DNA from: Spinacia oleracea
Taxonomy: Eukaryota > Streptophyta > Magnoliopsida > Caryophyllales > Amaranthaceae
Length of the DNA stretch: 64,000 nucleotides
Assembly: GCF_020520425.1 (NCBI RefSeq)
Contig: NC_079487.1
Coordinates: 85,937,141-86,001,140 of the forward strand
Direction: 5' to 3'
The position numbers and the translations under genes are program-made. Numbering within the stretch: position 1 is the first letter of the stretch; every line of letters starts with the position of its first letter. Positions 1 through 37,862 of the stretch are shown in pieces. A model generated the notes under the pieces. It did not search any database, was not told the DNA's origin, and worked only from the letters and a program-made list of their open reading frames with translations.

Positions 1-61
1 GTCTTTCGGATTTCCTAACACGTTTCCGAATGGGATCAGGATGTCATTGGGTGCGTTCAGC

Positions 62-70
62 TATATATAA
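62..70 (+). promoter_or_regulatory. TATA box of the antisense ORF in Gypsy 1
   Basis: A clean TATATATAA lies about 90 bp upstream of the ATG at 154 and is followed by a pyrimidine-rich leader (CTCTCTTTTCTTTTTG type), the usual layout of a plant Pol II core promoter. It suggests the antisense ORF has its own promoter, although a neighbouring LTR could also contribute. Only sequence evidence. Confidence 0.5.
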
Positions 71-153
71 GGGCTACATACGTCCCTATTTTCTACTACT
101 CTCAAATTCTCTCTTTTCTTTTTGTTGTGCTTTAATTATTCATTGCTTTTGCC

Positions 154-1952
154 ATGTCGATCCCTACTTTCTCACTCCAACGGACTGTTAGGCGTTGGCT
201 ACGGGCCCTTACTCCCACAGAAAAAGCTTTGTTAAAAGAATACCACTTAGAGGCACTTTTAGGCTTACAACAAATTAATATTGATTATAACTTTCTGCAT
301 GCTGCCCTAAGCTTTTGGGACTCCGATCATCATGTTTTTTCCTTTCGGGGCAACGAAATATGTCCTTTGCCCGATGAATTTGCTGCGATCCTTGGTTATC
401 CTACTAATGCTACTCCTGTTACCCCTGGCACTATTGAAGAGGGTAAAACAACCATAAGGGCTTTCCTAGGACTAGATGATAACATGTTTGCTGAAATTGT
501 TGTAGATGATAAGGTTAACTTGGCAAAACTTGTAAAACATTATTTTAGGCCTAGTAAGAACATGACCGAACAGAAATTGAACATCCGAGCCCTTGTATTT
601 TTCTTGTTGAATCATTATTTGCTGTCGAATAACAATGGTGAGTTCGGTGACATAAGGTTGATCCCCTTGATTAGCCAGATGGAAAGTTGCTATTCTATTG
701 TGTCGTTGGTTGTTGCCGAGACTTTGCTGAGTGCGGATGAGTTGAAGAAGGATGCCAAATCCGAACATTTTAAGGGAAGCCCCCTATTACTACTGGTGAT
801 CGATTTTTCCTTGGGCACGTATACGTCCCTTTTGCATATTTTTTTTTGCCTGGGGCTGAGTTTTAGCGCCCAGGGCTGGGCGCTGGAGTTTTCGGCGCCT
901 GGTCCTGGGCGTTGAAACTGCGCCCCAGGGACCATTTTTTTCATTCTTTTGATTCGATCGTACCTGTTTTTGCAGATTTGGCTTGCGGAACGGCTTAGAC
1001 TTTTGGAAGCTCCTGCCGATCCTAAACATTATCGCCCTATAGCCTTGGGTAACCGAAAATACCTGCACCAAGGTCAGGACGAGGCCGAATGGACCTCCTT
1101 TTTTACTTATGGCATTTGTTCTATTAAGTGGGTGGTACCATGGTGGGGTTTGACTACTATGACAGGGGGTTCTGATGTATCGGTTTATGTTTCTTTGTTG
1201 GGGCTATCTCGTCCCATTTATATTTTCCCTTACCGAGTCATGCGTCAATATGGTTTAAGCAGACTATCCCCTTTTCTGATACGGTACCACCTAAGGTAGC
1301 GGCCTTTTCACAAACACGGGTCTTAGCGTGGGCTAAGTATTATGATGGTCTCCCGCGTTGGGCCGTAGCTACAAATGGCTTTGTGGGTCTTTCTGAAAAC
1401 TACAAGTTGTGGATGAGCTCCGATGATAAAGATGTGAGGACCGAGGCTCGAAATGGGGAGCCGGCTGAGCTTTTGATACCTCGTATTCGTGTTAAATATG
1501 AGGGTCCTGATTCTGCCAGACCTCGTACCTATAGTATTAAGACTGTGAAAGCTCATCCTGATCGAAAGCGAAAGGAAGTTCCTCCCCATTCCAGTTTCAG
1601 GCCTAAAAAGATGCCTAACATGAAGGGGCCTGCTGTTGTTAAAAGAAATGCAAGCTCTCGCGGAGATCGTCGCCGGAACAATGTATGGGTTAGGAAGGCT
1701 CAGCCGCCTGTAGAAACAGTGGCTAGTCTAGTTGATGATAATAATCCTTCTCCCACCATTGCCTGTGCCCTCGAGGCTGAGCGGGCTATAACTGAGAATG
1801 TTTCTGAAGCCTTGGTATCTTTGGAAGTTAGTGTCCAGGAGCCGGTTCTTATGGAGATTGACATTGGGGCAGCGCGGAAGACTGTGGGGGTGGATCCTGC
1901 GAATATTGCCCTCTACAAGACTTTATTTGATGATCCAGAAGAACTAGAGTAG
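154..1952 (+). pseudogene. Antisense ORF of Gypsy 1, plant-mobile-domain/DUF7745-like, with one intron and a frameshift
   Basis: Exon 1 is 154-795 (214 codons). A phase-0 intron of 180 bp (GT at 796, TTTTTGCAG ending at 975) separates it from exon 2 (976-1952). The N-terminal half reads like the plant mobile domain/DUF7745 proteins that accompany Tat-type gypsy elements (for example FWDSDHHVFSFRGNEICPLP, then DEFAAILGYP). The C-terminal part is basic then acidic and looks disordered (KRKEVPPHSSFRPKKMP). The frame is lost near 1265-1290: the reading frame ends at TAG 1297-1299, and the family-like sequence resumes in another frame (VPPKVAAFSQTRVLAW...) to the stop at 1952. The intron holds a GC-rich double-hairpin module. 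Known: extra ORFs, including antisense ones, occur in plant Tat elements. Function unknown; the present copy is broken. Confidence 0.72.
862..918. repeat. Double-hairpin GC module, copy A (inside antisense-ORF intron)
   Basis: Two adjacent imperfect palindromes of the type GCGCCCAGG-CTGGGCGC, joined by a GTTTTCG linker and bordered by TTTTAG and TTGAAA. This copy lies entirely inside the 180-bp intron of the antisense ORF. An outer partial match (CCTGGGGC at 849-856 against GCCCCAGG at 923-930) adds a third stem. Confidence 0.8.
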
Positions 1953-3385
1953 TGTAGTTCTTGCTAGGGTGTAGGTGCCCTCCATTTATTTCAGTCGTGT
2001 TTGTTTTAATTTTTAGCACTCTGTTTTCCTTCTTATTATTTTTTAATAAAGGCGTATTTTTATTTTTCATTTTCATTTATTTTTGTTTCTCCTCTTTTTT
2101 ATGTATTTTATATGTCTAACACTTTTTGCACAAAGAATTTTTTTTTTTTATTTGGACCGAATCCTTGGTAAGGATTGCCTACGTATCTTGTCAGAATCAG
2201 GTCGCGCGTAGTTCTAGCTTTTGAATAAGTTCTAGTATGCCGGATTTCGGTAGATATGCCCTGAGGTGGAAACATATTACTTAGTCGGTCAAATGAGTGA
2301 AGTATTATCATTATTTTCATCTGCTATTTTTTGCCATAAGTCGTGTAAAATATGAAATTCGAAATTCGACTAATTTGTATGGCTATATTCTTGGTTGGTA
2401 AGCCTATTTGGATACGTACTGTACCCCCCAAGTGTTCGTTATTTTTCCGTTGTGTGCGGATAAAATGACGAGCACTTCAGAAAAAAAAAAAAATCAGGCA
2501 GAGAATTTCAACGCCCAGGCTGGGGCGTCAGAAATTTCGGCGCCCAGCCCTGGGCGCTGAAAATGACTTGGGCGGTCAATTTTTGACGCTTTGCTTCACA
2601 TGTTCTTGCATTTCTTTCTCTTTCTCTTTTTTTTTTTGTGCCTTGATATTTTGCTCGTATTTAAAGGCCAATTTTGAGGCTACTTTGGAGGCTTTTTGAC
2701 TGTTAGCGTGAAATGCGTTTTTGTCCGAATCAATTTTTTCTATTCGTGACTCGAAACAGTTTTGAAAATGGGGTTAGGGTGCGGAAGTTATGAAGATCCT
2801 TGTCTAGGTTTTTGAGGTGTTGTTAGTGAAGGGTATGATGGAATCTATGTTTTATGAATCTGTTTTTTTTTTTGGTAACATTTGCATTGTTTTGGATTTT
2901 GATTTCCTTTAATTCTGGGTTTGCATGGATTGACTCTTATGATGACGCTGGTTTGGCTTTTTAGGTTTTGGGGATATGAATGGGATAGTGTGGTTTATTT
3001 TGTGGGTTTCGGGAATTGGTTCCCATGGCACTATTTCAAAACCGAGTGGGCTTTGTTTGTTGGGCCTGGAGTGGGCCGCCTCTTTATTTTTGTATTTTGC
3101 AAGTACATTTGGTGTTTATTTAGTGTTAGAATAAAATTTTTAGGAGAAATATTACGCCTTTATTGATTCGGAAAGTAAGGAAAACACACTGAAATAAAAC
3201 TGACCCATATTCTAAGGGGCCTTAGGACCATCTAAAGTCTCTAGTATTTTTTTTCTATCAATCTAAAGAACTACTAGGCGCTTTTTACTAATGGTGCTCT
3301 ATGTGGCTCAAGCCTTGGGTTTAGTCTCATAAAACTTCGGTCCTTCACCGGTACTCATCTTGAATTCCATTCCTTTTGCATTGAC
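1953..3385. other. Non-coding interval of Gypsy 1 between antisense ORF and protease ORF
   Basis: No convincing ORF. The stretch holds T-rich sequence after the antisense ORF with an AATAAA-like motif near 2045 (its probable polyadenylation region), the second double-hairpin module, and low-complexity T/G-rich DNA to about 3166. Autonomous relatives would carry reverse transcriptase and integrase at this place; nothing of them is recognisable. Confidence 0.6.
2506..2563. repeat. Double-hairpin GC module, copy B
   Basis: Reads TTTCAACGCCCAGGCTGGGG, then CGTCAGAAATTTCGG and CGCCCAGCCCTGGGCGCTGA: two stems with the same linker and flanks as copies A, C and D. It lies in the non-coding gap between the two convergent coding blocks of Gypsy 1. 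Confidence 0.8.
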
Positions 3386-4966
3386 CTACTGATATGTCTT
3401 CACCCATCCGTTCTCGACCTCTTCTAGTGTTGATGCAGGAGAGATTAACCGGGTTGGATCGAAACCTTCATCTTGTAAAGCTAGGGTAGTCATCACAGTC
3501 TCGTTCTCCATAGGCCTCGATTCGTTAAACAATCTCCATAGAGCCTGGTTGTCCAATATTTCAGCTGTTTTAGTCTTGGTGAGGTGGGGTGCCTCATCCA
3601 AGGTGTGGCAGTTATGGAAAATTTCAAATCCGGGTTTTAGCAAGCCATCCTGAACGAAGGGTTCAGGGAAATCACAGCATGGGTGTTCTTCTCCTTCCCG
3701 AACGAACATCCCGTTAAGGGTCCTTTGATATGGGGGAAGGAGGGTGGTTTGTTTGGCTTTGTTAAGGCGTAGCCTAGACAGGCGGTCAGCAATATCTTCC
3801 TCCGTTGGTTCATAACCTAAGCCAAAGGGAGTAGATTTGTCGGGAAAAGGATGGAATGTGTATTCCTTCTTCCTTATGCCCAATGGGGTTCCTGGGAAAT
3901 AACCTTGAGCTAACAGCATTCTAGGGATGACTCGGGATGCATGCGGGTCTAGGAATGCTGGGTCATAATCTTCGATGAACTGGATTGTTTCTTCCATTTG
4001 AAACCCGTAAAGGTCGTCTGCAGTTTCGGCCGTTCCAACCATAGTGCAACCATAGGGCTTGATGTCGATTATTTGAAACTCCGTGGTGCGTGCCACAGGC
4101 CCGGTTTGTATGGTAAAGTTGATTTTTCCCAATACAGGCCTTCGGGAGTTATCATAAGCTCGTACCCCTTGCGTGGAGGTTTGGAAGTCATCGTTTCCTA
4201 GCCCTAAGCAATGGGCGGTTCGCAATGGGCAGACGTTAACCGCCGAACCATTATCTACGAGCGCTAGGGGGATGTTTTGTCCTTTGCATCCAACCACTAG
4301 GTAAAGGGCTTTATTGTGAGCACCCCCCTCTTTGGGTAAGTCTTTATCGGTGAAAACTATGGCCTTTTCTCCGGCATCTCTCGTGACATGGCTAACCAAT
4401 GAGTCAGGTGTGATATCTGTAGGTACTGAGATGAGGTCAAGTGAGCGAATAAGCTTTTCGCGATGTTCCTTTGAAGTACACATAAGATCCCATATGGTAA
4501 TCTCGGCGTTGGTTCTTTTTAGTTGTTTCAGGAGAGGATTTTCAATGACTTCCGCGACGGTGGCGTGCCGTCCATTCTCAGGAGTTTGTCTAACCGGGAT
4601 GTCGTCCATAGGAGGTGGGTGAATATCCGGTTGGTATATTCTTCCGGATCGGGTGAGGTTGTCGACCTCGGGCTGCTGAGGGGTGGTGTCAATGAGAGCA
4701 TACCCGGGCCAAGTTTCAGTGAAGAGGTCCTGGCCCGACACTTGAGATAGGTAAATATCTTCAGCATCATCATTCCACACACCGCACACTTCCCTCTCGA
4801 TTCGATCCATAGGGACCACAGCGAGTGGTGCACCTTGAGGTGTAATATACACCATGGGGTTGAAATTCTCTGGTTGGTCGAGAGAGATGTGACAAGAGCC
4901 GAGTGGGCTCTTGTTGTTGTTGGGTTTGCCAACGTTAGGGAAAGGTATCACTTTATCCTCTATCAT
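3386..4966 (-). pseudogene. Gypsy 1 protease ORF with zinc-knuckle-like start and G-patch-like segment
   Basis: A 526-codon ORF on the minus strand. In the same frame, readable sequence extends upstream of the first ATG to about 5105 and contains a Cys/His motif (YCKFHQGNGHDTENC) typical of the gag end in Tat-like elements. The retropepsin-like core is LALVDNGSAVNVCPL (about residues 235-250), with DNGS in place of the usual DT/SG. Further on, GYFPGTPLGIRKKEY and FGLGYEP resemble the G-patch that follows protease in plant gypsy polyproteins. The ORF ends at 3386 without entering reverse transcriptase. It is cut off from gag (5170-6147) by a TGA and a frame change between 5166 and 5105. Element role: maturation of gag products; probably inactive in this copy. 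Confidence 0.8.
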
Positions 4967-5169
4967 GTCCTGGATCGTATGTTTTAGATTCCAGCAGTTT
5001 TCAGTGTCATGCCCATTTCCTTGATGGAATTTGCAGTAAGTACCTTCGACCCAATATTTGCTTTTGACGGGAGGGTCACGGGTGGGCCTATAGGTCTCAA
5101 CTTTCCTTGATTGGTTAGTCTTTCAAAGGCTTGTACCAAAGTCGACCTGAGTGGGACAAACTTTCGGTC

Positions 5170-6147
5170 TCAGACCCATCTTCCAGGGTTTCTTCGGGTG
5201 GGAGTCTCTTCTACAGCATGGACTTCTTGGGCTTGGGATGTGTTACCCCGATTATAGGTTTTGTTCTTATATGTGGGTTTGCTTTGTATGGTTTTGGCGA
5301 GGTCGTCCTCGATCTTTATTCCCACATCATAAACTCTTTTGAAAGTGTCAAATCCCAGGTACCTAAGGTGTTGTCTGTAAGCCGGGTCCAGGTTGTCAAT
5401 GAATTTTTGGACCAATTCTGTTTCGGGAGGCCTATTGATTAGCTGGGCCGCCTGGTCCCTCCATCTAGCAAAGTAGGTCGTGAAACCCTCGTTTTTCTTT
5501 TGGAAGAGAACTTCCAGCTCGCGCATGGTGACTTGGAAATCCATGTTCGACGAGTATTGCTTGATGAAGACATTGACAAAGTCTTCCCAAGTGGGGAAGA
5601 GCTTAGGGTCCTGGTGATAGTACCATTTGAGCGGCACAGGTTCCAAGGACAAAGGAAAGGCAGGTAAGTACATGGACTTGTCCACGCCTTTCAAGTTCAT
5701 GGCATTCACAAAGCTCAGTAGATGATCACGGGGGTTGTCCGTGGCCTTGAACTTTGGTAAGTCAGATGAACTGAACTTTTCTGGTAGTTTGCCAGGAAAA
5801 GGTTCAGGATCGAGGGAGAAGTTTTTGCTCCCCATGGTTTGCTGTAGGACCATTTTTTCAATCCTCTTCTCGTTATCGAGGTCATTTTTGGCTTGCGCAG
5901 CCGCTAAAGCTTCATTTTCCATTTTTAGTTGGCCCATGAGTCGGGTCATTTGAGCCATCTGCTCTTGCAAATCTTCGATGGACATGTTTGAAGGTACGAA
6001 TCGAGGTTGGGGAAGCGGAGATCCTTGAAATGAGGGATGACGGACGGAGCTTGGAGTCACTAAACCTGGTGTTGGCGATGTATCTTCGAGACGCACTAAC
6101 CGTTGATTCCCTGATCGGCACCAAGTGGCAGGACCAGTCCTAGGCAT
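5170..6147 (-). CDS. gag: Gypsy 1 gag (capsid) ORF
   Basis: 325-codon ORF with an N-terminal Gln/Met-rich coiled-coil-like stretch (MSIEDLQEQMAQMTRLMGQL) followed by the retrotransposon gag domain: PRDHLLSFVNAMNLKG, LKWYYHQDPKLFPTWEDFVN, FQVTMRELEVLFQKKNEGF, TTYFARWRDQAAQLINRPPE. These are recognisable plant Ty3/gypsy gag motifs. It would form the virus-like particle that packages element RNA. The ORF stops at TGA (5170-5172) where homologous sequence continues in frame for some 20 codons, so the C-terminus and zinc-knuckle region are separated from it. The start at 6147 is the first ATG; an internal Met at the coiled coil is also possible. Confidence 0.85.
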   Translation of the reverse strand: MPRTGPATWCRSGNQRLVRLEDTSPTPGLVTPSSVRHPSFQGSPLPQPRFVPSNMSIEDLQEQMAQMTRLMGQLKMENEALAAAQAKNDLDNEKRIEKMVLQQTMGSKNFSLDPEPFPGKLPEKFSSSDLPKFKATDNPRDHLLSFVNAMNLKGVDKSMYLPAFPLSLEPVPLKWYYHQDPKLFPTWEDFVNVFIKQYSSNMDFQVTMRELEVLFQKKNEGFTTYFARWRDQAAQLINRPPETELVQKFIDNLDPAYRQHLRYLGFDTFKRVYDVGIKIEDDLAKTIQSKPTYKNKTYNRGNTSQAQEVHAVEETPTRRNPGRWV

Positions 6148-7345
6148 AAGATAAGCTAAAGTTTAGGTTCCCAAAGTTTCAAGCATTACTTAGTCTAGAC
6201 TTCGACTCTCTGAAATGGTTTTTCACTCTTTCTTTTGTCGGTACACTTTTTGGTTTTTTTTATTTTGGTCATTCTTTGGATTTTCGAAACACTTGCCCGT
6301 GTGACATTCATAGTTATTAGCACGTTCGGTTTTGGTGCCGAGTATTGTCGTCGTAGGAGGCCTAACAACGACACAAAGAGTTATTAATTTTTTTACGAGT
6401 CCCTTTTAAATCGAGTGCTTTTCTTACGCCCTCGTAGCAATTCTTTTTACGAACATTTTTTGTGCTACGTATTTTCCTTTCGCGCGGGTACCGAGGTTGC
6501 TGCGCTTGACCAGAAGGCCAAGCAGCAACTTCAGCGCCCAGCGAGGGGCGTGAGAAATTCTGGCGCCCAGCCAGGGGCGTTGAAAATGCGTCCCTGGTTG
6601 GTTCTCGTTTTCTGTCTTCTGTTTATGTGACTTCGATTTGCGTGCTGGCTTAATAACGTCCTTTACGCGTAACAGCGTTTGTGGGATTCGTTACAGGCCA
6701 TCCCGAGCGTCGCTTATTTTTGTGGCGATCATTCGGGTTTGCGGAACACGTGTTTTGGTATAACTCTTTGGCAAATTAGTCTATGAACATTTGGGCAATT
6801 TTTAAGGTCGTTGGTTTTCCGGGATAGTTTGTCACACACAATCACATATTTCGCTACACATGACTACATTACAAACATGGATTTGAAAGTTAAACATGTC
6901 ACATAGTTTGTGATAGGCTTCTTTGGGTAGTTTATTTGCGCCTGGCTTGGTACCGCTTCTATCGTAGATCCAACACATGCCCCGGTCGAGGTAGTGTCTT
7001 CAACAGACGAATTTCGCCCAAGAGGCCAACCCGCAAGTGCAAGCCAAGGGGGCATGCAGGCGAGAGGGACCTAATGAGCGAGCGATTGGGTTCGGGATAG
7101 GTGTACTACCTGCACAAGTACCAAGTGGGAAACATGCGCGGCTTATGCACCCCCCTATTGGCGAGAAAAGGTATCCTTAGTCCCAACTCCCGAGGGAGCC
7201 GAGATTCGTTATGCGGTTCTGCCCGTTCACATTAATATGCTGATTTTCAGGTCGTCCCAACTTGATGGGGAAATAAACGTGGGGTAGGATCGTTTCACCC
7301 TTCGGCTATTTTGATTACCTACAAGCACGATTATTTCCTTCACTA
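6148..7345. other. Gypsy 1 leader between PBS and gag
   Basis: About 1.2 kb of untranslated leader on the minus strand with no ORF of recognisable family. It contains the third double-hairpin module (6529-6586). A long leader between PBS and gag is common in Tat/Ogre elements. Confidence 0.6.
6529..6586. repeat. Double-hairpin GC module, copy C
   Basis: Reads CTTCAGCGCCCAGCGAGGGG, CGTGAGAAATTCTGG, CGCCCAGCCAGGGGCGTTGA. Same two-stem design as copies A, B and D, with stems weakened by substitutions (GCGAGGGGC). It lies in the gag leader of Gypsy 1. Confidence 0.75.
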
Positions 7346-7363
7346 TCCCCAGTGGAGTCGCCA
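7346..7363 (-). promoter_or_regulatory. Primer binding site of Gypsy 1
   Basis: On the minus strand this reads TGGCGACTCCACTGGGGA, starting two bases after the LTR end. It begins with the TGG complementary to the CCA of a tRNA and resembles PBSs described for Ogre/Tat elements (reported as tRNA-Arg type); the tRNA assignment was not checked here. Confidence 0.65.
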
Positions 7364-8220
7364 CTGTGAGGGGGTCGAAAAAACGCGAGGCTAATGCGTG
7401 ACCTCGTCCCTCGTGGGTGTGACGATTCTTTTTATTCAATCAAGTGTAATTGGATTTCCTGTGAGTTTACACCCAATTGACTAGTAATATAGGAGTCGCC
7501 ATTCAATTTTTAACGACAATGAGAAAAAATGACAAAACCCGGTTATCGTGACATAAAAGGAGTGCAATTATGTTTGACCACGACGGCCGTATGTTCCCTT
7601 GTGATCCCTGGTGTGGGGATCTCTCAACATACACCCGCAAGGTAGAGATTGAGGGTTCGGGGGACTGTAACTACCGAGAGGAGTACTTCGCTCGTCGATA
7701 ACTCCGGAGGCAGGATATCCTTACTAGCTCAGCATAAATAATTGAAGGGACATGTGTTAACTATTAAACTAATCTGAGTTGATTTTAGCAATATGCAACA
7801 TATAATACTAATTCGATCGTGATTATCTGATTTAAATAGCATTAAGGACCTAGCATGATAACCCGATTTCCCAAAAATATTATATTTGTTAGGCGTGATA
7901 GAACAATCAGATTTAGTTAGTTTAACAGTTCATAAAAAGGGCGAGGAAAGCAGTTAAATCATCGAAAAGGGAAACATTACGACGCACCCTTGAGAGGTGC
8001 GTCACGGTTCTCAGAAAACTAACCACTTTGACTTTGCTATTTGTCATTTTTATTTAACGAATCTCAATTATGGGACAGGATACGTTCTGTTCGATTTATG
8101 GATCGATTGCGACAGAACGCGTGAACAGTTTCGCAGCGTGAGGCTTAGGCTAAGGGTTGGAGTCAATACTCAGAATATAATTGTGTGTTGTGTGTCCTTT
8201 TCACGTCGAATTTAGGGGTC

Positions 8221-8228
8221 TATTTATA
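8221..8228 (-). promoter_or_regulatory. TATA box in Gypsy 1 LTR
   Basis: Minus strand CCCTATAAATAGAC, a canonical plant TATA context inside the LTR and in the direction of gag. Confidence 0.6.
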
Positions 8229-8303
8229 GGGAAGAGTTCGTGGAAAGATAGAATTGCAGAGTTCTAATCCACAAAGAATTAGGAAAAAACACGTACCCAG
8301 GTA

Positions 8304-8362
8304 TTTTCAGCGCCCAGGCCTGGGCGCCGAAGATTTCGGCGCCCAGAGCCAGGCGTTGAAAA
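8304..8362. repeat. Double-hairpin GC module, copy D (inside the LTR)
   Basis: The most regular copy: TTTTCAGCGCCCAGGCCTGG, GCGCCGAAGATTTCGG, CGCCCAGAGCCAGGCGTTGA. The first stem (GGCGCCCAGG/CCTGGGCGCC type) is almost a perfect palindrome. It lies upstream of the LTR TATA box with respect to minus-strand transcription. Confidence 0.8.
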
Positions 8363-8824
8363 TAGGGTATGGGCTGTTTTCTTTAGTCAGATTCGGATTC
8401 CTGAAATTCGTAGAGTTTGAGGCTTAATCGAGTCTTTTAGCGCATATCAATTTTATGACGGAATGCGTCTGGGCCCGTTACGAACTCTAGGCTCGTTAGG
8501 ATTTTAATTAATACGTAACTCTTATTTCCGAATCATATTAGGAATAGGATTCTCGCAGTTTTCTATCTCATTTAGGATTTATGTTGGAATGCAACACCTA
8601 ATTCTGACAGGTTTCTATCCTTTATGATTTGCCACTTTTTAGAAGCTACCTTTTACGGCAGTTACTATTTTTAGCAGGTTTCCATAAATAGCAGGTTTCG
8701 GGTGAAATGAAAAGGGGAATTGAGATTCGTTTATTTTATAGGAGATGCGTTGTCAAGTGGAGATTTATGCTTTCATCATCGAACCTTTCCCTTTCGGGAA
8801 TGGGGACAAAAGTAGGTGTCTACA

Positions 8825-23266: not shown

Positions 23267-23287
23267 ATTCACTAGTAGAAAAAACCC

Positions 23288-23625
23288 CTGTTGCAGCGGG
23301 CTTTTAGACCCCTGTTGCAGCGTACATCGTATGCTGCAACTGGGGGGCCTGCAACAAGTCTGAACTTGTTGCAGCGTACACTGTTGCTGCAAATGCAACA
23401 AGTGTGCAAAATTAGCAAAAATCTAGACCTGTTACAACGTACAAATTGTTGTTCGCTGCAATAGGGTAGGTTTGTTGCAGCGAACAACAATTTGTACGCT
23501 GCAACAGACCTACCCTATTGCAGCGAACAACAATATGCCCCCTGCAACAAGTCTTCATTTTAGCCTATTTTCACATACTTGTTGCAGCGTACAAGTATAT
23601 GTCCCCTGCAACAAAGCCGTCTTTT
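23288..23625. repeat. Left subterminal repeats of the CACTA element
   Basis: A dozen or so direct and inverted copies of GTTGCAGCGTACAA-like units. Two long inverted copies around TTGTTCGCTGCAATAGGGTA (23449-23471 against 23499-23525) form a potential large hairpin. Such arrays bind transposase in the En/Spm family. Confidence 0.8.
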
Positions 23626-24397
23626 TGGAGGGAAAATTTTAGTTTTAATTATTTATACCTAGAGTGCCTTGCACCAAATATAGGAACCTGTCAACAACAA
23701 TAATAGAATATCGCAATCTGTAGAACAAATATAAAAACAATAATTGGTGTTTTGTATACATATCCAAAGTGCACGTACTACATTTAATTATATGTTTCAA
23801 TTTCAACGTACGCATACATTTTAATATAAAATATTATTCTATAACATCTAAACCAACTCGATCGCTCACTAGTAGAAAAAACCCTTATTGATCTTCCCTT
23901 CTTCTATTTATCCTTGTTCCAGTTCTGTTGTTTGGCCTTGTTATTTGGGTGTCTTCTTCTGTGTGTATTGCATTTGCAGGTGAGAGTAAAGCTAGGGCTT
24001 TACATGCATCCCTTCAAAAACTTCTGGCTTCAGAGACACTGCCAACAACCAAGGCACCCAAATTAAAAATAAAAAATAAAAATCAAGCTCCATTAAGCAC
24101 GTAGTACAGTGAAATCAAACACATAAGCTCCAAATAAAGTTAAACAAAAAATATCAAAAACGAGATTAAACATTCAAAACACAACATCAATGTATTGTAA
24201 AACAACACCCCTCGACCCAAAAAAACCAGAGAAAATACGGCATCTTAGAGAGCTATATTAGAAGATCAACCATAAAGCCTGTAAAGGCTTACATAGAAAA
24301 GCAAAACAAAACTATATTGCTGCATCAGACTAGAACTCCTACGAGCAACTAGTGTAAACCAGACCTGACTCTGGCATGCTCTGTAAGATCATTCCTT
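23626..24397. other. Left interior of the CACTA element
   Basis: No supported gene. It has AT-rich DNA, a second copy of the CACTA terminal repeat (23867-23884), and an intron/exon-like stretch near 23978 (GCATTTGCAG followed by an open frame of about 27 codons) that may be a captured exon. The sequence next to Copia 2 continues the exon-like frame that resumes at 34723. Confidence 0.5.
23867..23884 (+). repeat. Additional internal CACTA terminal repeat
   Basis: CACTAGTAGAAAAAACCC occurs again 597 bp inside the left end and in the same orientation. No third inverted partner was found, and subterminal repeats do not follow it. It is either a remnant of another CACTA copy or a duplicated end. 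Confidence 0.75.
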
Positions 24398-24710
24398 CAC
24401 TTTGAAGGAAATAATGCCCTTGGTCCAAGTATGCATTCAATGTTAAGTCTAATAAATGCGGTTCAGTATTAATTAACAAGTTAATAATTCAGTGAGATCA
24501 AGTGAGCTGAATGCCTAGCTAGAGGCCGCTTCAGTTCAAGTGGAATTAATGATATTAATCCACAGCTTACTCTTGACTAAACCCGTAGGGTCACACAAAT
24601 AGTACGTAAACGGATCAAGTATTTAATGGCATTAAATACTCCATCTATGGATATTCGGAATCGACGGATCTTGGTTTCAGTGGGAGCTAGATCGTCAAAG
24701 GCAAGCAAAT

Positions 24711-25022
24711 GAATACTCCGGAAACGATGATATTGCCGGAAACGGAAATATGGATCGTATCGGAAATATAAATATTATTCAAGTCGTAGATGTTGCCGGA
24801 AACGGAAACATGGTACGTATCGGAAAATATTATCGGAAATAGAAATATTGCCGGAATCGGAAATATTGCCGGAAACGGAAATATTGTCTGAATCGGAAAT
24901 ATTATCGGAATCGGAAAATAATTCCGGAAACGGAAATATTAAATATTTGTTCGAAACGGAAATTAATTCCGGAATCGGAAATATTAAATATTGTTCGTAT
25001 CGGAAATGAATTCCGGAATCGA
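24711..25022. repeat. Degenerate CGGAAATATT array in the Copia 2 LTR
   Basis: About twenty imperfect units of the type GGAAATATTGCCGGAAACGG. The matching array in the 3' LTR (33682-33955) lacks about two units, the main difference between the two LTRs. Confidence 0.8.
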
Positions 25023-25418
25023 GAATTTAATCGGAAGCGCATCGTACGAATTAGCATCGGACGAGGCCTGCCAGACGAAGGCCCAGCACGAAGTCGGGCC
25101 ATCGCCCAGCAAGCCAAGCGCGACAACCACACGCCAAGCATACGACCAGGCCCCAGCGCAAAAGCCAGGCCCAGCCGAAGCTTGGGCGCGCGCGCGGGGC
25201 TGCGACGAGTGGGCTGGCGCTGTGCGTGGGCCGCAAGGCCTGCGTGCGGTGCTAGCGTATTACTCGAAGTGTGTTACTCGAATCCTAAAGCGTATAGAAT
25301 TCGTTTAATGATTAAATTCCTAATCCTAAAATATAAATTAATTAAATAAGAGTTCCACTAGGATTCTAATTTAATTAATTCGTATCCTAGTAGGATTCCA
25401 ATTCTCTTTCCATACCCC

Positions 25419-25426
25419 TATAAATA
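25419..25426 (+). promoter_or_regulatory. TATA box of Copia 2 LTR
   Basis: CCCCTATAAATATGTGG, a good plant TATA box, present again at 34353-34360 in the 3' LTR. Confidence 0.65.
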
Positions 25427-25784
25427 TGTGGCCTGGGTTCACAATTTATAACGAGTTTTTTCAAGTATTCAAAGTGAGTTTTTGAGAGAAAAATTCAGTC
25501 ACATACCTTGCCTAAAAGTGCCGAAATCATTAGTACCTTAAGGGCGATTCTAGTTGGTAAATCTTAAGGCGGATTCGGACGTGCTGTGGACTATCTACGG
25601 AGGGACGACACTTGGAGTCCTAAAGACTTGTTCTTGTTCGGTTCGGGCGCAGCTAGGGAAGGCACGCAACAAAGAGTATGCTTCTAAACTATGCTATATG
25701 ATTATGTGTAAATAATATGTATTCCTGGCTTAATGGTTGTTTCCGCATGATTTATGAATTGTCATATGTATCATAACCTAACAG

Positions 25785-25798
25785 TGGTATCACGAGCC
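25785..25798 (+). promoter_or_regulatory. Primer binding site of Copia 2
   Basis: TGGTATCACGAGCC one base after the LTR, an initiator-tRNA-Met-type copia PBS. Confidence 0.8.
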
Positions 25799-28544
25799 TC
25801 TTATTATTTTCATAATCTAAATTGCATGAACATGGTTAAATATTACAAATTTGCAAGAATTAAAAGGGGTGATTAATTTTCGTAATTGTTAATTAATTGC
25901 AAATTGCGTTTATTTAATTATACGTACGCAGTTTTTCGGCAGTTTCTTCGTTACTCATCCAAATCGAGTGATTTTTGTGTCAATTCCGCATGTACAAGGC
26001 ATTCTAAAATATTGCCGAACCCAGAATTCTCAAATTCGAAGCCTAACTATGACTTTTCGGAGGTTTTAGTTTTTCGAATGCAAAATTTCGTAAATTTAAG
26101 ATGTTAAATTAAATATTTGCGATTCTTGTTGATAAATCTTGAATTTTTGATTGACCTACTGTATATGTTTAACAAGTTTGAATGTCTAGCCTTGTTAATT
26201 ATGCAATCTAATTTGTAATTATGATTAATTTGTTGAAAATTGGAATAATTTAGAATTAATTTGATTTTCATAATTAGTTATAATTTAATTTGATACCTAT
26301 GATTAAAAACCACCATAAAAATTGTAAATTTATGTTAAATTTTAAATTTTTATGACCTAGACTTGAATCCATGTTAATCGGAAATCAATTGAATAATAAA
26401 TTTTCGATTTTTCGCCATAAAATTATGAAATTAATATTATTTATTAATTTGTCATTAATTTTAAATATAAATTTTTTAAATTTTATGCGTTTCGTTCATA
26501 TAACTTGCACGCACAAAGCAATGGCGCTACGTGTTACCCTTAAAGGGTGTTGTATAGTGCGGGCATGTGACGACGAGCAAGGGAGCTCGTCGCCCATGCG
26601 GCACGAATGCAATGAGCAAGGCCATGGTGCACGAGCACAAGGCAGCAGCCCTGCCTTGTGTAGTGGGCCGTGAGCAATGGACGAATGGGCGAGGGCGAAA
26701 GCAGGCACAGCAGTCGCGTGTGGGCAGCAAGCGAGCTGCGCCACAACACGCACTGCCTCGCGCAAGCGCGCGGAGCCTCTCGCGCAGCGAGCGCAAGCTC
26801 GCGTGCCACGAGTGCTCCGCCCAGCGTCGATGCCTCGCGCAGCGAGCGATGGCTCGCAGGATCGAAGCGCGCACAGCGAGCCCTGGCTCGCATGCAGCAA
26901 GCGATGGCGAGCGAATGTAGCGAGCGATGGCTCGCGTGCATCGAGCGCTGGCGCGCGCGCAGCGAGCACAAGCTCTCGTGGAGCCTTGCGAAGGATAGCA
27001 GCAGCAGCTATGCAACGCAGCGCATGGGCTGCGCGCACATGGCCAGCGATGGCTGTGTGCGTGTGGCCCATGGGCGTGCGATGCGTAGGGTGTTTGCGTT
27101 GCGATTAATTCGTTTTGAAATTTTAATTTAAAATTTTCAGTTTACGTAATTTTAATTAATTTTAAAATTAATAATTTAAATTATTTTCTTGGATTTTAAT
27201 TTTGAATATTGTAATTATAATAAATTTTATTTATTCTAATTATTTTACTAAAATTAAAATCATGAATTAATTTAAATACGACTGAAATTAAATTAAACTT
27301 TTGGATTCAATTATAAATTTATATGAGCTTTAAATTTTAATTAAATTTGTATGTTTCCGGTTAGACTAGAAATACATTTTTATGTTTAAAATTAGTAAAG
27401 CATATGAATTTATTGGTTTGAGTGGGAGCCCTTTTTAGTCATAAACTCTTGATTAGGTCTACAAATCCTTAAGGTTAAAACAACTTGAGTAGAATTAATA
27501 AGGACTGAATAATTGGTAGATTATTGGTGCCCTTGATTAAATGCTGCAAATGTTTACGTGATGCATAATGTGTTTTACTAACCAGCTATGTGGGCCATTC
27601 ATGATAATGAATGGGTGAATGGTATATATTGTATATGTACTGTTTTGCAGGTTATGAAGTGACTAGTATGGCCCAAATAGGATAGAAAATATGGTCTGCG
27701 TACCATTAATTTGAATGTAATTGGTCTAAAGTACCAAAGTTGTTTTTCAATTCAAATATGGTCTGCGTACCATCAAATAGTTGTAATTAGTTTTAATTAT
27801 AGCTTATCCTATTTGAAGAAAATTGTGCCTCCCACGGAGATTTTCAAGACGGACTTTGAAGTTAAAGCTTCAAGATGAAGTCGGGCCATACTAGATCACA
27901 TTTATCTTATGCATGCTTTAAGTTATTTATTGCTTTAAATATGTCTTAAAATGCATGAGATCAAAAGCTTGATTATGTTGCATGATTAAGGATTTTAGTT
28001 CACTTAAAATCTAACCAACATAGTAAGAGCCTTAAGTTCCAAACTTAAAAATTGAGTTATAAGGTGCCATGCCAAAATATACACTTGCTTGGATATCATT
28101 TACATCAATCTAGTAATAATTTTCGCTCAGCGAGGTGTTACTTATTGGTCCTAAAGGGGCAAGGTACACAAATAATTGTGAGTACATGTTAGTTTTGGTG
28201 AAACTCAACGATATAAGTGAGGAGTCCTTTTATGTCGTGGCAAAATCGATAGGTTTACCTAATAAGTTCTTAGACGTACCTATCAACCAAGAATAGTTTC
28301 TAGACTATTAGCAAAAGGCTTTTGCTTACCTAAGATGTTTTAGGATTAAGTCGACAAACTGTGCTTAGTTCTTCAATGATTTTAGGATCTTGGAATCATT
28401 TTATTCACACCTGCCAGAACACATAACTTGAATAAAATGCTTAATAAACATTGAATTATGCATGTATGCTAGAATTTAAGTTTATTAAGAGAAACTGTGA
28501 ATGGTTATTTATTTGTTTATTCTTTTCAATTGTAGTTTTTTAAT
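25799..28544 (+). other. Long leader of Copia 2 with GC-rich hairpin block
   Basis: 2.7 kb without coding content. Landmarks shared in order with Copia 1: AT-rich part; GC block (26500-27110); GGTTTGAGTGGGAGCC (27416-27431); two GGTCTGCGTACCAT (27691 and 27762); and an AGCGAGGTGTTAC phrase (28129). The frames open on both strands in the GC block are a composition effect. Confidence 0.75.
26500..27110. repeat. GC-rich block with repeated self-complementary units
   Basis: The block is built of variants of AGCGAGCGATGGCTCGC, each of which can fold into a short hairpin (GCGAGC...GCTCGC). At least six variants lie between 26780 and 26975. It is sharply bounded by AT-rich DNA on both sides. Confidence 0.75.
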
Positions 28545-31500
28545 ATGGCAAACAACAATTCATTCAACATTCGATCAATTCTCGAAAAGGAGAAATTGAA
28601 CGGGAAAAACTTCCTTGACTGGCAAAGGAACTTGCAAATAGTTCTTATGCAGGAAGAAAAGGAGTATGTCCTAGAAGAGGCGATGCTAGAAGCCGCAGAC
28701 GACGGGGTCACTCAGGCAGCCCTCAATCGTTGGATTGATGCCAACAAGGATGTGAAATGTCTAATGCTCGCCACCATGAGTGCGGATCTGCAGAAAACGT
28801 TCATCAACTCAGATGCTTTCACAATCATCAGTGAGTTGAAGAACATGTTCCAAGATCTGGCTCGAGTCGAAAGATTCGAGACTCATAGGCAAATTCTTGA
28901 GACCAAGCTTAAGAAAGGCGAGCCCGTAAGTCCACATGTTCTCAAAATGATTGGACTCATTGAGAATATGAGTCGGCTGGATCAGAAATTTTCTCAGGAA
29001 ATGGCTATAGACACCATCCTCCATTCTCTTCATAGCGGGTATGATCAGTTCAAACTGAACTACAGTATGAATAGTCTGGACAAAACGCTCACTGAGCTTC
29101 ACGGTATGCTGAAGACCGCTGAAAAGACGCTCAAAAGTGATAAGCAGGATGTGCTTATGGTGCGTGGGGGCAAGTTCAAGAAATCTGGAAAGAAGAGGAA
29201 TGCTAAGAAAGGTGGCAACAAGGCCAGCCCAACTAAGCAAACTGGCGCCAAATCTGTAAAGAGGAAGGTCAGTCAACCCACTTCTGAATCCGAATGCTTC
29301 TACTGCAAGAAGAAGGGGCATTGGAAGAGAGATTGCTTGAAGCTAAAGGAAGATCAGAAGAACGGAACAGTCGTTCCATCTTCAGGTATTTTCGTTATAG
29401 ACTGTATACTTGCTAATTCAACTTCTTGGGTATTAGATACAGGTTGTGGCTCACACTTATGTTCCAATCCACAGGGACTAAGAAGAAGTAGAAAGTTAAG
29501 CAAGGGTGAAGTCGACCTACGAGTGGGAAATGGAGCACGGATTGCTGCATTAGCTGTAGGAACTTACTATTTGTCGTTGCCCTCCGGGCTAGTTTTGGAA
29601 CTGGAAGAATGTTTCCATGTTCCAAGTCTTACTAAAAACATCATTTCAGTTTCTTGCTTAGATGCTAAGGGATTTTCCTTTTTAATAAAAGACAATAGTT
29701 GTTCGTTTTATTTTAAAGAGATGTTTTATGGATCTGCTAGATTAGTCAATGGACTTTATTTATTAGATCACGACAAACAAGTATATAACATAAATACCAA
29801 AAAGGCCAAAAAGGATGATTCAGATCTCACCTATCTGTGGCATTGTCGATTAGGCCATATAAACTTGAAACGCTTAGAAAGACTTCAAAAGGAAGGAATT
29901 CTAGAACCATTTGACTTAGAGGATTATGGTAAATGCGAATCATGTTTACTTGGCAAAATGACAAAGCAGCCTTTCTCTAAAGTTGGAGAAAGAGCAAATG
30001 AACTATTGGGTTTAATCCATACAGATGTATGTGGACCAATGAGTACAAATGCTAGAGGTGGTTTCAGCTACTTTATCACTTTCACTGATGACTTCAGTAG
30101 ATATGGTTATGTCTACCTAATGAAGCATAAGTCTGAATCCTTTGACAAATTCAAGGAATTTCAGAGTGAAGTAGAGAATCAATTAGGCAAGAAGATTAAG
30201 GCACTGCGGTCTGATAGAGGCGGTGAATATCTGAGCTATGAATTTGATGACCATCTGAAAGAATGTGGAATTCTATCAGAATTGACTCCTCCTGGAACAC
30301 CACAATGGAACGGTGTGTCGGAACGGAGGAACAGAACCTTGCTAGACATGGTCAGGTCAATGATGGGTCAGGCCAAACTTCCATTAGAATTTTGGGGACA
30401 TGCACTAAATACAGCTGCACTCACTATAAATAGAGCTCCGTCTAAAGCTGTCGAAAAGACTCCATACGAATTATGGTTTGGAAAGCCTCCAAATGTGTCT
30501 TTTCTTAAGATTTGGGGATGTGAAGTATACGTCAAACGATTAATTTCAGACAAACTTCATCCAAAATCTGACAAATGTATCCTTGTGGGCTATCCAAAGG
30601 AAACAAAGGGGTATTACTTCTACAATACATCTGAGAACAAAGTGTTTGTTGCTCGAGATGGTGTCTTTTTGGAGAAAGATCACATTTCCAAAATGACAAG
30701 TGGGAGAAAAGTAGACCTTGAAGAAATTCGAGTCGAACAACAAACTCTAGAGAATGCTCAAGATGACATTCAGGATGAAACTCAGAGATCTTTAGAAGAA
30801 TCTGGTGAGAATCATGGTCAATCTAGAAATGTTACCCCGCGTAGATCGCAAAGATATAGATCTCAACCGGAAAGGTACTTAGGTATTTTGACGAACGAGA
30901 GCTATGACGTTCTATTACTTGAAAGTGATGAACCTACGACTTACAAATAAGCTATGACGAGCCCTAGCTCCAAGCAATGGCAAGAAGCCATGCAATCTGA
31001 ATTAGACTCCATGTCTGAAAACCAAGTATGGGATTTGGTCGATTTGCCAGATGGCTACCAAGCCATTGGAAGCAAATGGGTTTTCAAACTGAAAAAGGAC
31101 AAGGATGGGAAACTTGAAGTTTTCAAAGCTAGATTGGTTGCAAAAGGTTACAGGCAAGTCCACGGTGTGGATTACGATGAAACCTTTTCACCAGTTGCAA
31201 TGCTAAAGTCTATTCGGATAATGTTAGCAATCGCTGCATATTACGATTACGAAATATGGCAGATGGATGTCAAAACTGCTTTCTTAAACGGCGTTTTAAC
31301 AGAAACTGTGTTTATGACACAGCCTGAAGGTTTTGAGGATCCAAAGAATGCTAAAAAGGTATGCAAGCTAAAGAAGTCAATCTACGGATTGAAGCAGGCA
31401 TCCAGGAGCTGGAATATACGTTTTGATGAAGCAGTCAGTGACTTTGGTTTCATCAAGAACGCAGACGAATCTTGTGTATACAAGAAGGTCAGTGGGAGCA

Positions 31501-32510
31501 AAATTGATTTCCTAGTATTATATGTCGACGACATATTACTTATCGGAAATGACATTCCTATGTTGAACTCTGTCAAGATTTGGCTTGGGAAATGTTTTTC
31601 GATGAAAGATCTAGGAGAAGCACAGTACATATTGGGCATCAAGATTTACAGAGATAGATCTAAAAGGATGATTGGACTTAGTCAAAGAACTTATATCAAT
31701 AAAGTGCTTGATAGGTTCAAGATGGCGGACTCCAAGCGAGGCTACCTACCCATGTCTCATGGAATGACTCTAAGCAAGACTTAGTGCCCAAAAACACTTG
31801 ATGAGCGTAGACGAATGAATGGGATTCCATATGCATCATTGATTGGTTCAATGATGTATGCTATGATATGTACACGCCCGGATGTTGCGTACGCACTCAG
31901 TGCTACGAGCAGATACCAGTCAGACCCAGGAGAGGCGCATTGGACTGCTGCCAAGAATATTCTGAAGTACCTGAAAAGGCACAAAGATGACTTCCTGGTC
32001 TATGGTGGAGATGATGAATTAATTGTTAAAGGCTATACGGACGCAAGTTTCCAAACCGACAAAGATGATTTCAGATCACAATCTGGGTTTGTCTTCTGCC
32101 TCAACGGAGGAGCAGTAAGCTGGAAAAGTGCTAAGCAAAGCACCATTGCGGATTCTACAACTGAAGCGGAGTACATTGCTGCACATGAAGCAGCAAAGGA
32201 AGCTATATGGCTAAGGAAGTTCATAAGTGAACTTGGTGTAGTCCCCTCCATTAAAGGACCAATAGCCCTGTATTGTGATAATAACGGAGCTATTGCACAA
32301 GCAAAGGAGCCTAGACACCACCAGAGAGTCAAGCATGTACTTCGTAGATTTCACCTTCTACGAGAGTTTGTTGAAAGAAAAGAAGTCGAGATAAGCAAAA
32401 TTGGAACTGATGACAACATATCAGATCCATTGACTAAACCTCTGCCGCAGGCGAAGCACAACTCGCACACTGCAGCTATGGGAATCAAGCATATTGGAGA
32501 ATGGCTTTGA
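28545..32510 (+). pseudogene. gag-pol: Copia 2 gag-pol polyprotein with two in-frame stops
   Basis: One frame of 1322 codons from ATG 28545 to TGA 32510, interrupted only by TAA (30948-30950) and TAG (31782-31784). Domains in order: gag (residues ~1-210); CCHC zinc knuckle CFYCKKKGHWKRDC (~251); protease WVLDTGCGSHLCS (~295); pre-integrase HHCC LWHCRLGHINLKRL (~430); integrase with the D, D and E motifs IHTDVCGP, RSDRGGEY and SERRNRTLLDM (~490-595); reverse transcriptase MDVKTAFLNG and YVDDILLIGND (~905-995); RNase H GYTDASF and STTEAEYIAA (~1162-1210). Order protease-integrase-RT-RNase H is diagnostic of Ty1/copia. The first stop falls between integrase and reverse transcriptase, the second in the RT/RNase H connection. 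The copy cannot make a full polyprotein without readthrough. Confidence 0.95.
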
Positions 32511-33358
32511 TGTCTCTGTTTAATGTTTTAAAGTTTTAGAGTTTAAATCTTTGTAAAACATTATTGGTTAATCATTCACAATAAATGAAAGGAATTCATT
32601 TTTCCATTTAATTTGTGGTTTATTAAATGATGAGTCCCTTCAATTTGACGATATATTCAAGATAGACTGTCAGGACCAGTCCTGTGACTAAGAAATGTCT
32701 ATCAAGTGAACTTGAATGTCAAAGGTTGAAAATGGTCCCTAGTCGGAGTTTTCTATAAAATTGGACGCATAGAAAATGTTAGACGACTAGAATGCAAGAT
32801 GACTAGTAGTTCTGTTTCTTGAACTATGTGGACATGGCAATGTCATAATCATTTGCATAGATACTTACTTTGGGAAGACTAGTATCGGACAAGACCTATG
32901 AAACTTTACTGTAAGAGATGAAAATCTGTCATAAGTAAATTTCATTAAAATTATTAGACACTAAATCCTCAATACCTGAGTGATTTGAGATTACTTGTTT
33001 GAGAACTTGCTTTGACGTTGACCAACCGTCGCACCGTAAAAAGAGGCTATAAAGGCAACGCTCAGGTAATCACCTATCAAACGAAGTCTAATCTCAAGAT
33101 CGCAAGATTGGGATTGTCCTCCCATAAATAGGGATGAGATGCTTAAAAGTTGTACAAGGCCACTCGGGGAGCTAGAAACTGTGAAATGCATGGCCGTGCT
33201 CGGATGAATCATAGGCTATGATTATCTGTTTATTTGATCAGTTGAACTCTGAAACCGAGGAACACCTCTGGACATAATAAGGATGACAACTCTTACCTTA
33301 TGTTCAAGAGCAAGCATCGAGCGGCAAAGGAATTAGGAAATGCACACTTGTCCCTAAG
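32511..33358 (+). other. Conserved 3' non-coding region of Copia 2
   Basis: Non-coding, but it shares blocks with Copia 1: GCATAGATACTTA, GTCGCACCGTAAAA followed by GAGGCTATAAA (33028 here, 16261 in Copia 1), GATTGTCCTCC, GAAATGCATGGCCGTGCTC, and the terminal purine tract. Confidence 0.7.
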
Positions 33359-33372
33359 GACAAGTGGGAGAC
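33359..33372 (+). promoter_or_regulatory. Polypurine tract of Copia 2
   Basis: GACAAGTGGGAGAC directly before the 3' LTR. Confidence 0.75.
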
Positions 33373-34717: not shown

Positions 34718-34722
34718 CACTT

Positions 34723-36642: not shown

Positions 36643-36720
36643 GAAATTGTCTCTGTAATGCAAGACAGAAAATTAGGAACAATTAGGAATAAATTGTCTC
36701 TGTAATGCAAGACAGAAAAT
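36643..36720. repeat. Direct repeat of 30 bp
   Basis: AATTGTCTCTGTAATGCAAG followed by ACAGAAAATT occurs twice with 18 bp between, inside the CACTA element. Confidence 0.9.
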
Positions 36721-37841: not shown

Positions 37842-37862
37842 GGGTTTTTTCTACTAGTGATT

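What the first reader, a model, noticed from the sequence alone, without database searches (positions are those of the whole stretch)
862..8362. A double-hairpin GC module repeated in four non-coding intervals of one gypsy element
A ~57-bp unit, two adjacent palindromes of the CGCCCAGG-CTGGGCG type with a conserved GAAATTTCGG linker and TTTCAG/TTGAAA borders, occurs at 862-918 (intron of the antisense ORF), 2506-2563 (between the convergent ORFs), 6529-6586 (gag leader) and 8304-8362 (LTR). None is in a coding part and I saw none elsewhere in the window. The copies differ in bases but keep the design, as if the paired structure matters. Possible roles: RNA packaging or dimerisation, a boundary or methylation target, or a small self-copying hairpin parasite of this element family. 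The role is inference; the repeats are seen.
Basis: partly seen in the sequence, partly recalled or inferred. Interest (0 to 1): 0.78.

Follow-up and report, generated by a model that had tools for sequence, protein, structure and literature searches.

The report
Repeated palindrome module of plant retrotransposon
A 57-base double palindrome recurs in the non-coding parts of one large family of plant jumping genes, including a fixed short distance upstream of both of its promoters, and looks like a repeated control site rather than a mobile hairpin.

Summary
The four modules are real and homologous; similarity stops at their borders. In the window's own 894-Mb genome the half-module pattern has 7,589 + 7,778 strand hits against 0 for the reversed pattern. 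This element carries six copies, two just left of the window: both LTRs, gag leader, intergenic spacer, intron of the antisense gene, and upstream of that gene. Sites are fixed: occupied versus shortened 2,647 v 5 (leader), 2,583 v 8 (LTR; 77, 83), 194 v 1 (intron; 88, 93), in the lengths counted. A relative with pol, in which our gag finds no match, has modules at corresponding places. This argues against a self-copying hairpin. Compensatory pairing is absent for the two-hairpin fold and near chance for one long hairpin. Instead four half-sites are conserved while palindrome centres vary. Modules end 75-76 bp from the LTR TATA box (23 of 24) and 80-82 bp from the antisense TATA box (8 of 8). 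Best reading: a repeated DNA operator, comparable to Sirevirus palindromic boxes or VANC target motifs. The binding protein is unknown, and at the leader site the module is no more conserved than its surroundings.

The parts
861..917 (+). module u1, in the inferred intron of the antisense gene; extended by an outer GCCTGGGGC/GCCCCAGG arm
   Evidence: intron RNA folds with z -9.7
2506..2562 (.). module u2, spacer between the convergent genes
6529..6585 (.). module u3, leader between PBS and gag
   Evidence: 2,647 occupied v 5 shortened sites in the genome
8305..8361 (.). module u4, LTR, 76 bp upstream of the LTR TATA box
   Evidence: 2,583 occupied v 8 shortened
7365..8824 (-). 5' LTR, 1,460 bp, TGTAGACACC...CA; 26 mismatches in 1,457 aligned positions against the 3' LTR at L031:6652-8112
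   Evidence: the end abuts a copia LTR
8221..8228 (-). TATA box of the LTR promoter (TATAAATA on the - strand), inferred
   Evidence: one of only two places in 1-8824 with any of the octamers TATAAATA, TATTTATA, TATATATA
62..70 (+). TATA box of the antisense gene, inferred; module u0 ends 81 bp upstream, outside the window
7347..7363 (-). primer binding site TGGCGACTCCACTGGGG, inferred
   Evidence: read; family typicality recalled
5170..6147 (-). gag
   Evidence: Pfam Retrotrans_gag 2.3e-07
3386..5122 (-). continuation of gag and protease region
   Evidence: open frame; protease inferred from a VDNGSA motif, no Pfam hit
154..795 (+). antisense gene, exon 1
   Evidence: DUF7745 3.7e-06 (26.7 bits, cut-off 26); Plant mobile domain 0.0015, 18.2 bits, below cut-off 34.9
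796..975 (+). inferred intron of the antisense gene, holds u1
   Evidence: GT...AG borders in 8 of 8 u1 copies; splicing not shown
976..1952 (+). antisense gene, second exon; reading frame changes within it in this copy
   Evidence: open frames; no Pfam hit for 976-1254

Best explanation
The module is a built-in, vertically inherited cis-regulatory unit of this Ty3/gypsy family. Each 57-bp unit is two 28-bp palindromes, hence four copies of a half-site of the type TTYARCGCC(C)AG. I infer that a protein (host factor or element-encoded) binds these half-sites as dimers or pairs of dimers. Shown: one module in each of five non-coding sites, near-complete occupancy at the three sites counted, fixed spacing upstream of both inferred TATA boxes, conserved half-site cores with free centres, little or no compensatory change. 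Inferred: that a protein binds, and that the unit sets the activity of the LTR promoter and of the antisense promoter together, with the intron, leader and spacer copies acting as further binding sites.
For: Occupancy at three sites; where both flanks were recognised in the fetched blocks the module is present in 8 of 8 (u1), 10 of 10 (u2), 9 of 9 (u3), 23 of 23 (u4). Spacing to TATA 75-76 bp in 23 of 24 LTR modules (the 24th, the outer one of a double-module LTR, 148 bp) and 80-82 bp in 8 of 8 u0 copies; the only two such TATA octamers in 1-8824 are these two. A random-placement estimate for two TATA boxes both lying 60-90 bp downstream of a module is 0.0002 (rough, the range was chosen after seeing the data). 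Core columns 7-10, 19-22, 36-39 and 48-51 are 94-100% identical over 68 distinct modules; palindrome centres 38-68%. In the u3 set (26 distinct, 17 of them picked by flank only) variation is concentrated in columns 15-17 and 32-33. The pol-bearing relative has modules in both LTRs, leader, spacer and upstream of its antisense gene, with LTR spacing 75 and 76 bp. Lower divergence than flanks at u1 (0.045 v 0.187; no u1 copy fits the pattern that picked the loci) and in the half of u4 not covered by the pattern (0.022 in 22 of 24 copies, 0.048 with all 24; u4 flanks 0.136).
Against: At u3 the module is not more conserved than the leader as a whole (0.095 v median window 0.093; 596 of 1,160 windows as low or lower), and u0 hardly more than its flanks (0.113 v 0.133). 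At u1 the value is at the level of the exons (exon medians 0.061 and 0.045; intron median 0.102). Among 100 flank-anchored LTRs the exact module is kept in 39, neighbouring 57-mers in 31 and 22 (the neighbours contain the 12-13 anchor bases, which favours them); 22 keep the module but neither neighbour, 21 keep a neighbour but not the module, so the constraint is moderate. In the pol-bearing relative the antisense TATA-like box is only about 20 bp from the module. No known factor was matched to the half-site. No binding, expression or methylation data were available. The conserved-stem, variable-centre pattern would also suit two small hairpins.
Confidence: 0.55

Rival explanations
1. The module works as RNA: a strong hairpin in the genomic RNA or the antisense pre-mRNA, for packaging, dimerisation, splicing or as a dicer substrate.
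For: All four window copies fold better than shuffles on both strands (z -3.2 to -9.3). The u1 intron RNA is a 29-bp stem with 3-nt loop plus an 8-bp outer stem, -90.3 kcal/mol for the 180-nt intron, z -9.7. On the + strand u1 has 22 Watson-Crick and 7 G-U pairs and no A-C; over 7 distinct u1 copies 98% of pairs hold.
Against: No compensatory signal for the two-hairpin fold (83.1% paired v 83.9% in shuffles, n=68). The long hairpin is at chance over all 68 (81.0 v 80.8) and marginal in two subsets: 9 site representatives (36 of 500 shuffles as high) and u0 (8 of 500). The four window copies equal the shuffled mean. The palindrome centres, which would pair in the long hairpin, are the most variable columns. 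u0 and the 5' LTR copy of u4 lie upstream of the TATA boxes, so outside the transcripts that start there (the 3' LTR copy would be transcribed).
Confidence: 0.17
2. A small selfish palindrome that copies itself into the gaps of this family, like mitochondrial double-hairpin elements or a MITE.
For: Same unit in several unrelated intervals; an LTR with two modules (C1:1155017 block); a single-palindrome site (near C1:266426) and a 1.5-unit site in the pol relative.
Against: In the lengths counted the three tested sites are occupied in more than 99% of copies. None of the 8 short LTR sites has the 12-13 bp gap of a clean empty site (gaps 17-27 bp, by length only); of the 5 short leader sites 4 keep part of the module and 1 lacks it together with flanking bases. 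Positions are shared with a relative in which our gag finds no match.
Confidence: 0.12
3. The palindromes are what the host recognises: they raise double-stranded RNA and methylation in the LTR, as proposed for maize Sireviruses, and persist because they are also cis-regulatory.
For: 5-6 CG sites per 57-bp module; strong folding; the precedent is described in PMC10760457 (passages).
Against: No small RNA or methylation data could be examined; a pure liability should be lost, yet occupancy is near complete.
Confidence: 0.13

Closest known systems
Sirevirus palindromic repeated motifs (RM boxes), Bousios et al. 2010, PMC2829016 (passages and section 9 read)
   Same: Palindromic, CpG-bearing boxes upstream of the TATA box in the LTR, with extra copies upstream of a second gene
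   Different: Ty1/copia hosts; core CGG-CCG in all but one of 13; clustered, at least 8 boxes per element. Here Ty3/gypsy, core CGCC-GGCG, one two-palindrome module per compartment, also in an intron, the leader and a spacer
VANC target motifs of VANDAL transposons, Hosaka et al. 2017, PMC5735166 (passages read); PMC10398659 (abstract read)
   Same: Short element-specific motif accumulated in introns, intergenic and terminal non-coding parts; VANC carries DUF1985, and the antisense ORF of the pol relative has a sub-threshold DUF1985 match
   Different: VANC21 motifs lie in the same orientation in dense tandem arrays that diverge rapidly; here inverted pairs and conserved positions. No binding shown
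Repetitive or double hairpin elements of mitochondrial genomes (passages in PMC2800124)
   Same: Small, hairpin-forming, in non-coding gaps
   Different: Those vary in presence between close relatives; these are nearly always present
Retand LTR retrotransposons with antisense ORFs, PMC11963269 (abstract, section 11 part 1, some passages)
   Same: Long region with antisense ORFs before the 3' LTR; non-autonomous members known
   Different: 97% of clusters there have antisense ORFs with TRP28 (abstract); here DUF7745/PMD-like. I saw no such module in the parts read; two occurrences of 'palindrom' in that paper were not shown to me

Membership tests
Mobile hairpin elements (DHE/RHE, MITE-like) | Presence/absence variation at homologous sites | tested here: not met
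   2,647 v 5, 2,583 v 8, 194 v 1; some gap lengths not counted
Mobile hairpin elements (DHE/RHE, MITE-like) | Hairpin-forming short unit in non-coding gaps | tested here: met
Mobile hairpin elements (DHE/RHE, MITE-like) | Clean empty site, with or without target-site duplication | tested here: not met
   short leader sites keep part of the module or lose flanking bases; short LTR sites have the wrong length for clean loss (letters not shown)
Sirevirus RM boxes | Palindromic boxes a short way upstream of the LTR TATA box | tested here: met
   75-76 bp in 23 of 24
Sirevirus RM boxes | CGG-CCG core in a Ty1/copia Sirevirus | tested here: not met
   core CGCC-GGCG; Retrotrans_gag and Ty3_capsid-like gag
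Sirevirus RM boxes | Extra copies upstream of a second gene | tested here: met
   u0, 80-82 bp upstream of the antisense TATA box in 8 of 8
VANC-type anti-silencing targets | Motifs in introns, intergenic and terminal non-coding regions | tested here: met
VANC-type anti-silencing targets | Same-orientation tandem arrays at high density | tested here: not met
   inverted half-site pairs, as a rule one module per site
VANC-type anti-silencing targets | Element-encoded VANC protein (DUF1985) that binds the motif | tested here: inconclusive
   DUF1985 5.4e-05, 23.6 bits against cut-off 35.1, in the pol relative; none listed for the window ORF pieces; binding not testable
Retand lineage | Antisense ORF with TRP28 domain | tested here: not met
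   no PF04195 among hits of the window ORFs scanned; the frame-shifted remainder was not scanned whole
Retand lineage | Reverse transcriptase phylogeny | not tested
   no RT found in the window's element; no tree built for the pol relative

The most novel reading that the evidence does not exclude
The antisense PMD/DUF7745-type gene encodes a factor that binds the module in every non-coding compartment, including its own promoter and intron, and keeps the whole family (gag-only and pol-only members alike) out of silencing: a VANC-like, self-addressing anti-silencing system invented by an LTR retrotransposon.
Probability: 0.14. Interest if true: 0.85.

Novelty: new variant of a known kind. Interest (0 to 1): 0.55.

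Why it matters
It gives a concrete, testable candidate for how a large plant retrotransposon family wires its two opposing promoters and shares control between complementary non-autonomous members, and it extends palindromic cis-boxes, described for Ty1/copia Sireviruses, to a Ty3/gypsy family with antisense genes of unknown purpose. If the antisense protein binds the module, the question of what these extra ORFs do becomes directly testable.

Tried and rejected
Chance GC-rich sequence: rejected (control pattern 0 hits; E-values). Part of a longer duplication: rejected. Known RNA family: the only Rfam match at gathering score in the window is a tRNA at 40159-40230. Subterminal repeats of a CACTA element: such repeats exist in the window (23.3 kb and 37.7 kb) but have another sequence. 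Relatives in viral contigs (patterns: 0; gag protein: 10 candidates, none confirmed) and genome contigs (0). From memory I compared the half-site with E2F and site-II (TCP) sites and saw no exact match; no motif library was searched.

Limits: the loci (all on contig C1) were picked by a pattern that fixes 24 of the 57 positions, so u2, u4 and u0 conservation is biased; u1 and u3 copies do not fit that pattern. In one search one LTR of the pol relative is counted twice among the 26 u4 rows. For the leader and LTR sites gap lengths 31-54 and over 85, and for the intron 109-129 and over 160, were not counted (a leader count for 30-55 did not complete; the others were not asked); intron lengths run up to the 160 limit, so 194 is a lower bound. 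For the pairing tests 2 of the 68 fetched modules were left out (the half-module at C1_264926:1499 and the shifted one at C1_1380000:10573); without repeats and with the pol relative's copies 51 distinct remained, and 17 of 18 typed u3 modules were new, giving 68. Of the 30 u3 modules shown, 2 with length changes were left out and 10 were already represented. In the u4 half test 2 of 24 copies (the double-module LTR) were left out; the value with them is 0.048. A second-exon piece used was cut one base out of the open frame; its hits are not used.
Full report
Observation. The four modules exist at 861-917, 2506-2562, 6529-6585 and 8305-8361. Pairwise blastn inside the window gives E-values down to 5.9e-10. 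No fifth copy is found in the window, and the similarity stops at the module borders. Each unit is two near-perfect palindromes of about 28 bp, so it contains four copies of one half-site, and the whole unit is also its own imperfect inverted repeat.

Host element. The unit belongs to a Ty3/gypsy element on the minus strand. The 5' LTR is 7365-8824, the primer site 7347-7363 (inferred), gag 5170-6147 (Pfam), and a continuation with a protease-like motif runs to 3386. No RT, RNase H or integrase was found: no Pfam hit in the four frames scanned, and best tblastn E 0.10. An antisense gene (154-1952) scores as DUF7745 and weakly as Plant mobile domain. The left end, fetched from the genome, shows the 3' LTR at L031:6652-8112; the LTR pair differs at 26 of 1,457 aligned positions, and the element is about 12.2 kb long. 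It sits in the LTR of a copia element. Two further modules lie in that left part: in the 3' LTR, and upstream of the antisense gene (u0).

Genome. The window's genome has 894 Mb in 242 contigs. A half-module pattern with 24 fixed positions hits 7,589 forward and 7,778 reverse against 0 for the reversed pattern; a near-palindrome can count on both strands. In 288 kb of fetched blocks (17 blocks) I found 68 modules: 62 with flanks of this element at five sites (u0 8, u1 8, u2 13, u3 9, u4 24) and 6 without. Of the 6, two lie between LTRs of a diverged relative (LTRs starting at C1:1382815 and C1:1392188), two in a pol-bearing relative, and two in a 3-kb block with no element match, whose near flanks resemble the diverged relative by eye. 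The blocks were picked by the pattern on contig C1, so this is not a random sample, and modules outside such elements elsewhere are not excluded.

A complementary relative. At C1:1551545-1564523 lies an element with LTRs 82-92% identical to ours, with RT, RNase H and integrase, an antisense Plant mobile domain gene (1.2e-11), and no match to our gag at E up to 1. It has modules in both LTRs, the leader, the pol-antisense spacer (one and a half units) and upstream of the antisense gene; none was found in its antisense gene's introns. Ours has gag and no pol. That the two kinds help each other is inference.

Fixed, not mobile. Anchoring on flanks, I counted occupied and shortened sites: leader 2,647 v 5, LTR 2,583 v 8, antisense intron 194 v 1. 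None of the 8 short LTR sites has the 12-13 bp gap expected of a clean empty site; their letters were not shown. Of the 5 short leader sites, 4 keep part of the module and 1 lacks it together with flanking bases. In the blocks, every site with both flanks recognised has its module: 8 of 8, 10 of 10, 9 of 9 and 23 of 23. This is the pattern of inherited parts that are sometimes deleted.

Pairing. The lowest-energy fold is one long hairpin. With the four window copies the pairing equals the shuffled mean (86.1 v 86.0%). With 68 distinct modules the two-hairpin fold is 83.1% paired against 83.9% in shuffles, with 3 pairs changed on both sides against 5.2. The long hairpin is 81.0 against 80.8%, with 9 against 7.3. 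Two subsets are marginal for the long hairpin: 9 site representatives, where 36 of 500 shuffles are as high, and u0, 8 of 500. Power is limited because many pairs never vary. The exception is u1: on the strand that would be the antisense gene's pre-mRNA, 29 of 29 pairs hold, 7 of them G-U and none A-C, and the intron RNA is an extreme hairpin (z -9.7).

What is conserved. Over the 68 distinct modules the four half-site cores are 94-100% identical per column, while the palindrome centres are 38-68%. In the 26 distinct u3 modules, 17 of them chosen by flank only, variation sits in columns 15-17 and 32-33. Divergence of module against flank: u1 0.045 v 0.187, u2 0.084 v 0.198, u4 0.044 v 0.136, u3 0.095 v 0.124, u0 0.113 v 0.133. 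Halves not covered by the pattern: u4 right half 0.022 (22 of 24 copies; 0.048 with all), u2 left half 0.136. Among 100 flank-anchored LTRs the exact module is kept in 39, the left and right 57-mers in 31 and 22 although these include the anchors; 22 keep the module but neither neighbour, and 21 keep a neighbour but not the module. Genome-wide exact counts are 2,684 for the module, 1,297 left and 757 right. Against this, windows along the leader show u3 to be average (596 of 1,160 as low or lower), and u1 is at exon level in its gene (565 of 1,896 windows as low or lower; intron median 0.102), while u4 (22 of 1,405) and u2 (16 of 1,377) are among the lowest (u2 and u4 partly biased by the way loci were picked).

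Position. The module lies 75-76 bp upstream of the LTR TATA box in 23 of 24 cases; the 24th is the outer module of an LTR that has two. It lies 80-82 bp upstream of the antisense gene's TATA box in 8 of 8. Only two places in 1-8824 hold one of the TATA octamers sought, and both are these. In the pol-bearing relative the LTR spacing is 75 and 76 bp, and the antisense TATA-like box is about 20 bp away. The TATA boxes are inferred from sequence.

Mechanism. I take the unit for a repeated operator: four half-sites read as DNA by a protein that controls both opposing promoters and also sits in the leader, intron and spacer. Half-site conservation with free centres, weak or no compensation and fixed promoter spacing fit this. 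Two-hairpin RNA or cruciform readings are not excluded, because a stem that hardly varies cannot show compensation.

Known kinds. Sirevirus palindromic boxes lie upstream of the LTR TATA box and upstream of a second gene (PMC2829016, section 9), but have another core, another superfamily and clustered arrays. VANC21 of VANDAL21 binds a short motif in introns, intergenic and terminal non-coding parts (PMC5735166, passages), but in same-orientation arrays. The pol relative's antisense ORF has a sub-threshold DUF1985 match, the domain that paper marks in VANC. Mitochondrial hairpin elements (PMC2800124, passages) differ in being variable in presence. Maize Sirevirus palindromes have been linked to small RNA (PMC10760457, passages; the 2016 paper itself is not held). 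Searches listed (8 to 20 rows each, of 90 to 1,671 papers found) no paper whose title or abstract start describes this module; I read only the papers named here, in the parts named, so I do not claim that it is unpublished.

Noticed in passing
window 23270-37859: A CACTA-type DNA transposon: ends CACTAGTAGAAAAAACCC / GGGTTTTTTCTACTAGTG, 3-bp duplication ATT, GTTGCAGC repeats near both ends, with a copia element (open frames 28536-32510) inside it and sitting inside the gag of a second gypsy element (the CACTA label is recalled).
   Followed up: partly
L044 and L051 (C1:1551545-1564523) against window 1-8824: Complementary partners with similar LTRs and leader: one has gag and protease region without pol, the other pol with no match to that gag.
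   Followed up: partly
L021/L022, C1:1156483-1156621: An LTR in which the single u4 module is replaced by two modules 74 bp apart, the inner one keeping the 75-bp spacing to TATA.
   Followed up: no
L001 1499-1533 and L044 7704-7790: Sites with a single palindrome (half a module) and with one and a half units, so the number of palindromes per site can change.
   Followed up: no
window 855-925: u1 pairs fully on the + strand by using seven G-U pairs and no A-C pair; the other strand folds much worse (-55.9 v -31.0 kcal/mol).
   Followed up: partly
window 2137-2221: An 85-bp stretch upstream of u2 is 93% identical in the pol-bearing relative although blastn found no longer match around it, so it may be another conserved non-coding block.
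   Followed up: no
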